From Xanthostigma xanthostigma (taxonomy: Eukaryota > Arthropoda > Insecta > Raphidioptera > Raphidiidae): a stretch of 64,000 nucleotides of DNA. Made by a program: the position numbers and the translations under genes. The notes beneath the pieces are model-generated. The model had not been told where the DNA came from. It ran no database searches and was given only the letters and a program-made list of their open reading frames with translations. The stretch covers positions 47,214,001 through 47,278,000 of the forward strand of contig OY754466.1 of assembly GCA_963575645.1 (NCBI GenBank). Reading direction: 5' to 3'. This document shows, piece by piece, positions 20,093-26,000 of the stretch (positions are counted from its first letter, which is position 1; the number at the start of each line of letters is the position of its first letter).

Positions 20093-23000
20093 CTGCAAAA
20101 AAATGTATGATTTAAAATTTAAAAGCCGCACTTTTTGACGTGATAACGTCTTATAAATTGATGAATCACCAATCTTATAAATTGATGAAACACCGGCTGC
20201 ATGCACGAAAAAGTGAAACGTTCCTAACGTTCCGCCTGACCCTGTGCGTGCTTTTCTCGAAAACGGCCCTAACGATTTGGATGAAATTTACTGAAAAGGG
20301 ATTTTGGGGGGCAAAAAATCGTTTTAGCTAGGTCTCATCTCTCGAAAAAATCGTTTTCTTACAAATTTTATCATTATAAAAATCAATTTTTTGACTTATG
20401 AAAATACTTAAATATTGTAAGTAGGTTTTGGAATTTTATATAAACAATGAAACAATTGTTTTCAAAATATTATGACAGCTAATCTTTGAGACTTAAAATA
20501 AATACGAAAGAAAGAAAGTTAAAAAAAAAACAATTATTATTATAGGCGGTGTTTTAATTAATAAATAAAATTAACCTAAATTTGAAGCGAAAGATGCAAT
20601 ATCATAGATTCGAATTATTATAATTATTATATGTAGCAGATAGGAGAAATAGAACATAAATTATTGACGTGATAACGTCTTATAAATTGATGAATCACGT
20701 CAATATAAAAAGATGAAACACCGGCTGCATGCACGAAAAAGTGTAACGTTCCGCCTGACCCTGTGCGTGATTATTAAATATGATATTCGAGCGGAATACG
20801 TTATCACGTAAAACTATCGTCCGTAAACCGACTTTACAGACAACCAATTTTTTTTAAACGTTACTGACCAATAGTTGTTAATTTTAGTAAGTAACTATTC
20901 ACATTATTGTAAAATACTGATTCAAATTTTTTAGTAGCAACAGTACTTTCATAAATACTTAGTAAATAATTTTACCACTATTTAAGAAGAAATAATACGC
21001 GTTATAATTTCTGAAGTGAAACTTTATGCAAAGGTTAACGGTGGAACATTAATAATGGTTTTATATAATGAATGACAAATTATTTCAACAATTACGAAAC
21101 TTGAACTGAAATCATGCTTGAGGTTACATTTTAAATGTTTCTGTTGTGATTTGTTTTAGTATACTTTAATGAAAGAAAAATTCGTTACCAGATGTTATTT
21201 AAAATAATCTTTGAACGTATTAATTTGTAGTGTTTGGCAACTAATTTGTTTTGTATTTTCAACATCAAAATAAATCTGAAAATGTATTAAAAAATATACA
21301 AACCTATTTTCAGCTGTGACGCGTTTGAATTTCGCGCTCAAAGGTATTTCAACACCACTAGCCGAAGGAGTACTGAAAGGCATGTCGAGTGCCGTAAACG
21401 TATCAGTCAACATATCTCTAATACACAACAATCCGGGTACATAGTCCCGGTCCACTTCGGTCAAATCGGCCGGACTTAACTGCTGTCCCGCTAACTGTCT
21501 CCATACCGGTTCGGCCAAGGACAGCGATAACGGAGAACCTGTTCTTATTGCAATTCCCATCAGAACGCCCAAGAACCGGAACATGTTAAGATGTAGCACA
21601 GTCGTCGCTCGCGGGTTGAGCAGGAAGCAATCCCTGTTAGTTCCGGCTTCGTCGCGTCCGTTCGGCGTCGGCATCAACAGCGGCACGCTTCCGTTTTGGA
21701 GTTCGTCGCACATTTCGGCTATGCTTTCACTGTACCCTCCGCCGCAATCGTCTACGCTTTCGCCGACAAACTTAACTTTCCATATTCTATGCGGCAACGT
21801 TAACGATTCCGAAGTAAGTAACGGAAGTTTACTGACCATTTGCCCGAACACAGACTTCATACCGTCGGGTCCGGCGAGACCCCCGCGCGATCTCGACCAC
21901 TTAACTTGGATCCGATTAAGCTCGATAACGGGGCCGTGTTGCTTATCTCGAACCATCGTCGCTTGTACAACTTTCCTAAACGTCGCTTCCTTGATTCCGT
22001 ACACTAGCATTCCTCGCAACTGATCTAAAGATACTTCGCCAATAACGGAGAACATCGTTATGCAAGGACACAACAGTTCCGAGAAGTGATGAAGCAACAC
22101 GAGTCGATTGTGTAAAACGTCTAACGGAATGTCACGGACTAGATCGTATTCAACGGGAGCCCTCGACGGAAGTTGTGTGCCTGCAGACGATTGGCTCGTA
22201 GACCACGCTAACGTGTGCGCCGATCCGCACGCGACTCTTGTGATTTTTTTACCCTGTAATGACGCGACGAGTCTAGGACGTTGGATGGCATTCGTTGTAC
22301 CGTCCCCTAATTGACCTTCGTCATTGTCTCCCCACGTATATACATGACCTTGATCGCTGCACGCAACGCAGTGTAAAGATCCAGTTGCTAGCGCGATTAT
22401 GCGCATTCCTTGCAGCGCGGCTACTTTACGCGGCCTGCGGACGTGCTCGTCGGTTCCGTGCCCTAAACGATGATAATCACCTTTACCCCTGTAACACAGA
22501 AAGTATCGGTATTTATTTTTATTATGAGCTCTCAGCATTTGCTCAGTAAGATAAACTGATCGCTCACCAGTAAAGAATACAATCCCGGGATCTCGAATCT
22601 CGGGATCCCGGCCGTTTTCTGGTCCCGAAAATCCCGGGAATATACTTGGCTAATCTCGGGATTTTCGGGATTGCCACAAACAGATCTAGTTTGCATTCCG
22701 TAATCCGTTGCGCCTTGACAATTACCTTGCCTAGATTATGTTAATATTATTTATTACATTACGACAAAAAACAATCCTTAAATACGCGGTACGATATGTA
22801 AAAATATGAAATTTCCAGATCCTAAAGTACAAGTACAAAATGAATCGGGGTTGGCAAATAGTATTAGACGTGAAATAAACCTGTTCGAAAATAGAGGAGT
22901 TCGTGGATATCACTTAGAAACAGCATATAAGTATCTATTGTCTATTCCTCCAACGAGAGCAGAACCTGATCGAGCGTTTACAGCTGCTGCTTATGTTGAC

Positions 23001-26000
23001 AATAAACTACATAGCAGGCTTGGAAGTCAAACATTGGATGCTTTGATATTTCTGCGATTGAATTTTCGAAATTCTTAATAGTTTTTTTTGTGTTGTCTTT
23101 TCGATTTCTTGCAAAGCAGCAAAAGTAAAGTTTTTGAAGTGAAAACTTGTTTAGCGGCGTTGTACACTTTTTTTGTAATGGGTAAAAACTGTTAAACTCG
23201 CGTCAGATCTGACGCGTCAGGCGTCAGGGTCACGTGACCCTGACGAGTTGTTGAGACGGTCTACCGTACATGCTTCGGCAGTACATATACTAAAATTCGC
23301 TAGATGTCAGTAGCAATGTAAGTTACATGCAGTGCAAAAAATTATAAGCTATAAGCTTTAACAAAACCTTAAGAGATGTCGCCATGTACTCAGGTTTCGT
23401 AAAACTACAAATTTAAAAAATTACATCCAGTGACTGGCTGCATGTAATTTTATAAATGTGTAGTTTAACGAAACCTGGATGCATAGCGACATCTCTTAAT
23501 GTTTTGTCAAAGCTTATAGCTTATAATTTTTTGCACTGCATGTAACTTATATTGCTACTAGTGAAATTTAATTTAAGTACATCTAGGTTTTCACTTTCGC
23601 CGGCACTCCCGGAGTGCAACCCGTCTTTTTTTTTTGTTTTGTCTATTTTCTTTTCTTACTATATTGTGATTTGTGTTGTGCAACGATATTAAAAACATTT
23701 ATTAAGAAATTACTAAGTTTTTCTTTCATTTGAGCTCAATTAGAAACCACGTAGTCTAATCCCGGGATTACGCATAAAAAATTCCGTAATCCCGGGATTG
23801 AAAACCATGCTCGGGATTGTATTCTCTACTCACCAGGTATAGACGCTTCCCGATCGTGTTAAAGCCACAGAAAATTGCGAACCGCACTCGACTTTGCATA
23901 CACCTAGTCCAGCGAGACTCTCAATTTTAAGCGGAACTTTACATCCGTCGCTACCCCCTCGGCCCAGTTTTCCGTAGTCTCCGTCACCCCACGACCACAC
24001 GTTATCGTCATCCGTGATGCATAATGTCTGGGCATCTCCCGATCCGCAAGCTATATCAATAACCCGATATCCGAGTAAAGCTTCGACGAGCTTTGGTTCT
24101 AGTTGATCTTCACTATCGCCGTGACCCAAACGACCGTAACGCCCTTTACCCCACGTAAAAACTTGTCCGGAACTATTTATAGCAGCTGAATGCGCCCCTC
24201 CGCATGCGATATCGACGATCTCCTGTCCTTGTAGTTTTTCGACTAGTTTCGGGCGTACATAACAATTACGATTACCATGACCGAGTTTACCGTCGTCGCC
24301 TTCTCCCCAAGAATACACGTCTCCGTCAGCTGACAAGGCGAGGCAATGCTTTCCACCGGAATTGACGGCTACTTTTTTAATAAACACGTGCTGGATCGAT
24401 TCCAGAAGCGTAGGCACCAATACTGAATCTGTGCCTCCGATGCCCAGTCTTCCACCCGCTCCGTAACCAGTCGCGTATACTTTACCGTCCGCTGTTACGG
24501 CGAGCAAGGTCTGTTCACCGCCTATTATTTGAACCGGACGTAAACTGGTCAGAGATTCGCACGATGTTGGCAATTTCACTTTTGCACCCTCGATGCCTCC
24601 CAATTGACCGCGATGATTGTGTCCCCAACCGTAAATTGTACCAGAACCGCCCCAAGTCAACGTCCAATCTTCTGGTCGTCTGAAAATAAAATAACATAAA
24701 TTTAAGTCCGCCAACGTAACGCCAAGTTCAATATAAAAAATTAAATTTAACAGTAGCTCTTCATTTGCTCAATGTTGCCAAAAGTCAAGAAAAAAAATCC
24801 CTAATAAACTTTAGTTTGAACTGTAGATATTGACAGCGCTGGATTTATACTAGGGCAGTAGGGGCTAGTGCCCAGGGCAGCAAATTTTCAGGGGCTGCAA
24901 AATTTGAATCGTGGGAAAACAATTTTTTGCGTTACAGAAAATTCTTCGGAAAGTGTGATCGTGTTGAAATAAGAAATTATAAACGATTTTTTTTCAGTCA
25001 GACGCGTTTGCCCTTGAAAATATCTCGCAATTGATGAGCAATCGTTTAGTTTGTCAATTTATGATTTTTATTACGAAAAAGAATGTTTTTTGTCTAATCA
25101 TCTCATTAGCAAAAAAAAAGACTTTTGACATAAATGAATCTTTTTATTTATTTGAAAATTGTATACCGAACCTTTACTCAATTTTATATAGGATTTAGGT
25201 AATGGGGCGGCATTTTTCACGCTGCCTCAGGGCGGCACTTAGAGTAAATCTGGCCCTGGATATTGATTATTTTTAAAGCAATTATTTACATTTAAATTAA
25301 TGGGGAAAAGTATAAAAAACTAACCTGTTGAGCCAAGTGAGTAATTGTTCATCGTGCTCCTTTCTAAACACATCATGATTTTCGTGTTCCCAAACCTTAT
25401 CTTCCGTAATATCGGTATGCGACGGTGAAACTTCGTGAAGTTTCTTGCGCACTTCAAGACAAAACAATCTCGGTAAAGGTAATCGGTGAATGAGTGATCT
25501 TGCAACTTTCGTTGCCATACAGTATCGTCTAAACCACGCCCATTTGTGACTATCCGACAAACCGACCATCGAGTCGAGTTCAAGGTCACACGCCAACGCT
25601 ACAAGTACTTTGAAGAAGTCCGAGTGCATTAAATGGACGCCTCCCCTCACGCAAGGATCTTCGTATTCGTACTGTCTTAGCAACGCAGCAGGCAGTTCGT
25701 CCAACAACGTAGCGAGAGCGCTGTCGGATGGCGCTTTTCCTTTTAGAAGCATCGCTAAGGTACTTTTTCCACTCGTTCCGGGCGCATCGATTTTCGACGG
25801 CACCAAAAGTTTGTGTAGCATTTTCAAAGACCACATGCGTTGTGACGCAGCTAAGTAAAAAAAAAGAAAAGCACGCGTTGTGATAAAATGTATTTATAGA
25901 CCAGTGCAGTTAGCCCAAAAGCAAGTGAAAAAGGGACAAAATTAATAATAGAAAACGAATGATGAGGAAGGAAAGAAACTGCCGTCAGAAATACAGAAAC

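What the first reader, a model, noticed from the sequence alone, without database searches (positions are those of the whole stretch)
22563..23836. A hAT transposon duplicated a HERC2 splice donor as its own target site
The 8-bp target duplication (ctcaccag on plus, CTGGTGAG on minus) is exactly the junction between exon 26 and its intron. The gene now has two copies of the donor, 1.26 kb apart, with the element between them. The exon-side donor reads G|GTGAGTA because the first element base supplies the T, so it is closer to consensus than the original GTGAGC. The ancestral intron would have been about 79 bp. This is an insertion into the most sensitive position of an essential gene that appears silent because of the duplication itself.
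Basis: partly seen in the sequence, partly recalled or inferred. Interest (0 to 1): 0.75.

Follow-up and report, generated by a model that had tools for sequence, protein, structure and literature searches.

The report
Transposon inserted exactly on a splice site
A cut-and-paste (hAT) transposon landed exactly on an exon-intron border of a HERC2 gene, and because its insertion copies the 8-base landing site the gene kept a usable splice donor; this is real and neat, but it fits what such elements do and the splicing itself has not been observed.

Summary
Confirmed. Window 22571-23828 is a non-autonomous hAT element with 17-nt inverted ends, a leftover hAT dimerisation domain and a perfect 8-bp target duplication (22563-22570, 23829-23836). 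On the minus strand the duplicate reads CTG|GTGAG, the donor after a HERC2 RLD3 exon. Joining 23834 to 22488 gives protein aligning gaplessly to human HERC2 RLD3. Without element and one duplicate, a 79-nt GT-AG intron remains. Reading past the exon-side donor meets TGA at once. That donor scores best of 71 GT sites in the intron.

Corrections: the insert is two insertions, about 755 bp of hAT plus a 0.5-kb palindromic repeat whose junction here has one exact match in the genome. Exon number and essentiality were not checked. "Silent" is inferred; no RNA or relative was available.

Beyond the finding: the family's target preference (about nYTRYARn) favours duplicates ending in donor-like GTRAG (14 of 786 intact ends; swapped control 1), and the element supplies +6 T. 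Only this one of the 14 abuts a recognised coding exon, so a splice-site-seeking element is not indicated. An ordinary event, unusually clean.

The parts
23834..24679 (-). HERC2 exon (RLD3, RCC1-like domain) upstream of the intron; last base 23834
   Evidence: open frame; gapless alignment to human HERC2 RLD3 3kci; RCC1 and RLD Pfam matches; its 5' end rests on a simple acceptor score only
23829..23836 (-). exon-side copy of the 8-bp target duplication, CTG|GTGAG; donor G at 23833, +6 T supplied by the element
   Evidence: donor score 6.0, best of 71 GT sites in the intron, with recalled weights
22571..23828 (+). non-autonomous hAT element (about 755 bp without the nested repeat); 17-nt terminal inverted repeats at 22571-22587 and 23812-23828
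22806..23078 (+). remnant of a hAT transposase C-terminus (dimerisation region), ending in a stop
   Evidence: Pfam PF05699 E 6.9e-5, 23 bits against cut-off 21.4; 150 matching places scored in the genome, itself included
23131..23634 (.). second, nested repeat of about 0.5 kb inserted in a T-run of the hAT element; its left junction has one exact match in the genome
23309..23559 (.). long palindrome in the nested repeat: arms 23309-23430 and 23438-23559, 91% complementary, 7-nt gap
   Evidence: pair I1
22563..22570 (-). far copy of the target duplication, CTG|GTGAGC, in the original intron context; now a distal donor at 22567
   Evidence: donor score 4.26
22489..22562 (-). rest of the original intron, with its acceptor (TTTCTGTGTTACAG)
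   Evidence: empty intron 79 nt after joining the flanks
21198..22488 (-). open frame holding the next HERC2 exon (end of RLD3, linker, start of HECT); first exon base 22488, 3' exon end not determined

Best explanation
A non-autonomous hAT element inserted by staggered cut at positions -3 to +5 of an existing HERC2 donor site, and repair of the 8-nt stagger left one complete copy of the donor on each side (shown by sequence; the cut-and-repair step is established hAT biology). The spliceosome then uses the exon-side copy, so the element becomes part of the intron, which is now 1345 nt instead of 79 because a second repeat also lies inside the element (splicing inferred). The element's first base puts T at +6, making the used donor slightly stronger than the old one. 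The far copy is left as a redundant donor whose use would bring an immediate stop. The site was hit because it fits the family's ordinary target preference, not because the element looks for splice sites (inferred from the counts).
For: Perfect 8-bp duplicate at the ends of inverted repeats. 8-bp duplicates in the family: 19 perfect and 5 one-mismatch of 33 copies. hAT dimerisation domain. Gapless RLD3 protein across the junction. Empty intron 79 nt, GT-AG, not a multiple of 3, so an intron existed before. Exon-side donor 6.0 against 4.26 for the far one, top of 71 GT sites; read-through gives SVYTW followed by TGA. The exon region has one match in the assembly by DNA search, so no second intact copy was found. 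CTCACCAG falls in the best 5.9% of all 8-mers by the family's target logo, though only 3 of the 19 duplicates behind the logo score lower.
Against: No RNA evidence and no empty orthologous site. The donor weights are recalled metazoan values, not trained on this species. The intron holds another fair donor (AAG|GTAATT at 22725, score 5.53) and five AATAAA/ATTAAA motifs on the sense strand, so aberrant splicing or early polyadenylation is possible. The +6 gain is small: a rough scan of 15 neighbouring frame pairs of this gene proposed a splice pair for 9, six of them with a positive score; among those six donors +6 is T in three, this one included.
Confidence: 0.87

Rival explanations
1. The insertion is not silent: part of the transcripts use the far donor, an element-borne splice site or a polyadenylation signal, so HERC2 output is reduced but tolerated.
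For: Identical -3 to +5 donor at both ends; a second fair donor at 22725; AATAAA/ATTAAA at 23703, 23572, 22755, 22523 and 22517 (the last two lie in the original 79-nt intron and so are older); a palindrome with 122-nt arms in the intron.
Against: The exon-side donor is the best-scoring in the intron, and the flanking RLD3 and HECT frames that were examined show no stop or shift.
Confidence: 0.25
2. The element family behaves like an Introner: its target preference and its terminal T make duplicates into splice donors, so that it lands without harm in genes.
For: 14 of 786 intact ends are preceded by GTRAG, against 1 place for the swapped TGRAG; every such end then reads GTRAGT.
Against: Of those 14 only the HERC2 copy abuts a recognised coding exon; the longest other open frame reaching the junction (95 aa, L077; its last 80 aa searched) has no Pfam match, the next is 47 aa; these shorter ones were not searched. 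In HERC2 the intron is older than the element. The target logo, made from copies found without regard to flanks, predicts about 22 such ends by itself, more than the 14 seen (my arithmetic).
Confidence: 0.06
3. Chance 8-mer repeat or assembly error; no insertion at the donor.
For: None found; raw reads were not available.
Against: The 8-mers sit exactly at the inverted ends, as in 24 of 33 other copies with at most one mismatch; the protein joins without a gap.
Confidence: 0.02

Closest known systems
Non-autonomous hAT elements / MITEs, such as the BuT2 MITEs of Drosophila (PMC3942097, passages read) and mar (PMC3517528, search listing only)
   Same: 8-bp duplicates, short inverted ends, internally deleted copies; here also a hAT dimerisation remnant
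   Different: 786 exact ends here against 24 MITE copies for BuT2 in D. willistoni; target logo about nYTRYARn; subfamily (Ac, Buster, Tip) not resolved
Introners with target-site duplications (PMC9860276, passages read)
   Same: The target duplication supplies a splice site, so the element is removed as intron
   Different: Introners create introns at new places in many genes; here the intron is older and only one of 14 candidate copies is at a recognised exon
Maize Ds elements spliced from transcripts (Giroux 1994, Wessler 1991, Dennis 1988: seen only as reference-list entries in PMC3260210; content recalled)
   Same: hAT element in a gene tolerated through splicing
   Different: As recalled, those are exon insertions that use splice sites in or next to the element; here the gene's own donor is duplicated

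Membership tests
hAT superfamily | 8-bp target site duplication | tested here: met
   perfect here; 19 perfect and 5 one-mismatch of 33 other copies
hAT superfamily | terminal inverted repeats of 10-25 bp (range from PMC8961557 and PMC3942097, passages) | tested here: met
   17 nt, one mismatch
hAT superfamily | hAT transposase | tested here: met
   only the C-terminal dimerisation region is left: PF05699, 23 bits, cut-off 21.4; a full transposase of the family was not sought, and this copy is not autonomous
hAT, Ac family | target consensus nTnnnnAn (given for hobo in PMC8961557, passages read) | tested here: inconclusive
   CTCACCAG fits, but in 19 symmetrised duplicates T at 2 and A at 7 are only 50%; positions 3-6 are more informative
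Introner | creates new introns in many genes | tested here: not met
   pre-existing 79-nt intron; 1 of 14 donor-like copies at a recognised coding exon; introns made through other splice-site arrangements were not looked for
HERC2 | RLD3 followed by HECT | tested here: met
   3kci E 2e-215; RCC1 matches and HECT profile positions 3-138 of 306; the protein given to these calls stops inside HECT

The most novel reading that the evidence does not exclude
This hAT family's target preference, with its terminal T, is by nature matched to splice donors: insertions tend to leave a complete GTRAGT donor on the exon side, so such families can enlarge introns from the donor end without harm, and this HERC2 copy is one instance of a general, little-noticed route of intron growth.
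Probability: 0.12. Interest if true: 0.55.

Novelty: new member of a known kind. Interest (0 to 1): 0.35.

Why it matters
It is a clean natural case in which the target duplication rescues the very splice site that was hit, with two donors identical from -3 to +5 and 1.27 kb apart, useful for testing donor choice. It also suggests a simple genome-wide test of whether target preferences of DNA transposons overlap splice-site consensus.

Tried and rejected
An empty or paralogous HERC2 copy was sought with the 864-bp upstream flank as DNA: one match only, the window itself; a diverged paralogue would be missed. The idea that the family homes on donors was tested with the pattern GTRAG + element end (14 places), a swapped control (1 place; whether that place has the full 16-base end was not checked) and inspection of all 14 flanks: 7 have a perfect far duplicate with the strict right-end motif, HERC2 is an eighth with a variant motif, 2 have one mismatch, and in 4 no far end was found; only HERC2 has a recognised coding exon. 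Only the longest other frame (L077) was searched in Pfam; untranslated exons cannot be excluded. The idea that the nested repeat travelled with the hAT element was tested with its left junction: one exact match; the 15 others all have two mismatches and were read, from their letters alone, as other contexts of the nested family; the reversed control pattern gave 1. The two insertions could not be ordered by age: 9 of 752 sites of the hAT part are private among 39 copies, and 7 of 503 sites of the nested repeat differ from the majority of 6 other copies. The hAT part differs from the majority of 38 copies at 33 of 752 sites (4.4%), much of it shared with other copies. A full gene model was not built; the rough scan found no pair for 6 of 15 neighbouring frame pairs and a negative score for 3. 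The hAT subfamily was left open. Six literature searches listed no paper that I recognised as describing a transposon duplicating an existing donor; they cover open-licence PMC papers and the search words used only, and most listings were judged by title and abstract start. PMC7605248 (passages) concerns splicing into Drosophila transposons and was not used further.

Full report
What is there. The plus strand carries CTCACCAG at 22563-22570 and 23829-23836. Between them lies DNA with 17-nt inverted ends, one mismatch. The left 511 bp and the right 181 bp were each compared with the genome: first-look candidates 607 and 586, of which 40 each were scored and matched. The exact 16-base end occurs 786 times (388 forward, 398 reverse). 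From the fetched loci, 38 other copies with both ends 600-900 bp apart were extracted; this length filter drops longer or shorter copies, such as L027 (1543 bp, perfect duplicate) and L024 (595 bp). Five of the 38 had been found by a donor-like pattern and were set aside; of the remaining 33, 19 have a perfect 8-bp duplicate and 5 differ at one base; the other 9 differ more, in part because the boundary was misplaced. A remnant reading frame at 22806-23078 matches the hAT dimerisation domain just above Pfam's cut-off. This is a non-autonomous hAT element.

Two insertions, not one. The 38 copies are 726-793 bp long, while this one is 1258 bp; alignment places about 0.5 kb of extra DNA at a T-run. 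That DNA, 23131-23634, is a separate high-copy repeat, 96-98% alike in the copies scored, with a long palindrome. Its left junction with the hAT element has one exact match in the genome, this one. The hAT part differs from the family majority at 33 of 752 sites, but only 9 of 752 (1.2%) are private to it; the nested repeat differs from its majority at 7 of 503 (1.4%). Both look moderately young; I give no date, since no rate for this species was available.

The gene. On the minus strand the frame 24679-23834 continued at 22488 gives a protein that aligns to human HERC2 RLD3 (3kci, E 2e-215) with no gap over 375 residues, the junction falling inside [16 protein letters not shown]. Pfam gives RCC1 repeats and the first part of HECT. 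The upstream exon region has one match in the assembly. The species was not identified; the genome held has 623 Mb in 28 contigs.

The donor. The target duplicate on the minus strand is CTG|GTGAG, positions -3 to +5. The exon-side copy is followed by TAGAG from the element, the far copy by the original CGATC. With recalled metazoan donor weights the exon-side donor scores 6.0, the far one 4.26, and the exon-side donor is the highest of 71 GT sites in the intron; the next is 5.53 at 22725. Joining the flanks gives a 79-nt GT-AG intron; if the exon-side donor is passed over, the frame reads SVYTW and then TGA. So, of the two duplicate donors, only the exon-side one, paired with the acceptor before 22488, yields the protein. 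That the cell does this is inferred: no RNA was available. The upkeep of the reading frames is weak support, because at about 1% divergence a dead gene might still look intact.

Is the site special to the element? The 19 perfect duplicates, counted on both strands, give a preference close to nYTRYARn. CTCACCAG lies in the best 5.9% of 8-mers, but only 3 of the 19 duplicates score lower. Ends preceded by GTRAG number 14, all with the full 16-base end, that is 14 of 786; uniform bases would give about 1.5, and the logo about 22 (my arithmetic), so the count is no higher than the preference predicts; the swapped TGRAG gives 1. Donor-like duplicates are thus common because of the preference. Of these 14, only the HERC2 copy abuts a recognised coding exon. 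Taking half the intact ends as copies and an assumed 50,000-150,000 introns (recalled range), 0.03-0.1 insertions exactly at -3 to +5 would be expected for this family, about threefold more for a site weighted like this one. Over all the transposon families of a genome, a few such events are to be expected (inference).

Comparison. Introners that take a splice site from their target duplicate are described in PMC9860276 (passages read), including a family that takes the 5' splice site from it. The present case shares that principle but enlarges an old intron. Maize Ds cases are recalled, seen only as references in PMC3260210. The Ac-type target consensus comes from PMC8961557 (passages read); BuT2 MITEs from PMC3942097 (passages read).

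Verdict. The finding is real and well read. It is an elegant but ordinary consequence of target site duplication; its main value is as a natural two-donor test case.

Noticed in passing
window 44900-45187: A second element matches only the first 44 and last 48 bases of the nested repeat, so that repeat family may have shared ends and variable middles.
   Followed up: no
window 23131-23634: The nested repeat begins and ends at T-rich runs here and in the six other copies looked at; its superfamily and its own target duplicate could not be settled.
   Followed up: partly
L069-L082: Fourteen hAT copies make GTRAGT donor-like junctions; thirteen of these are away from recognised coding exons and could act as new donors in transcripts.
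   Followed up: partly
window 22512-22523: Two AATAAA motifs lie in the original 79-nt intron on the sense strand, close to the acceptor.
   Followed up: no
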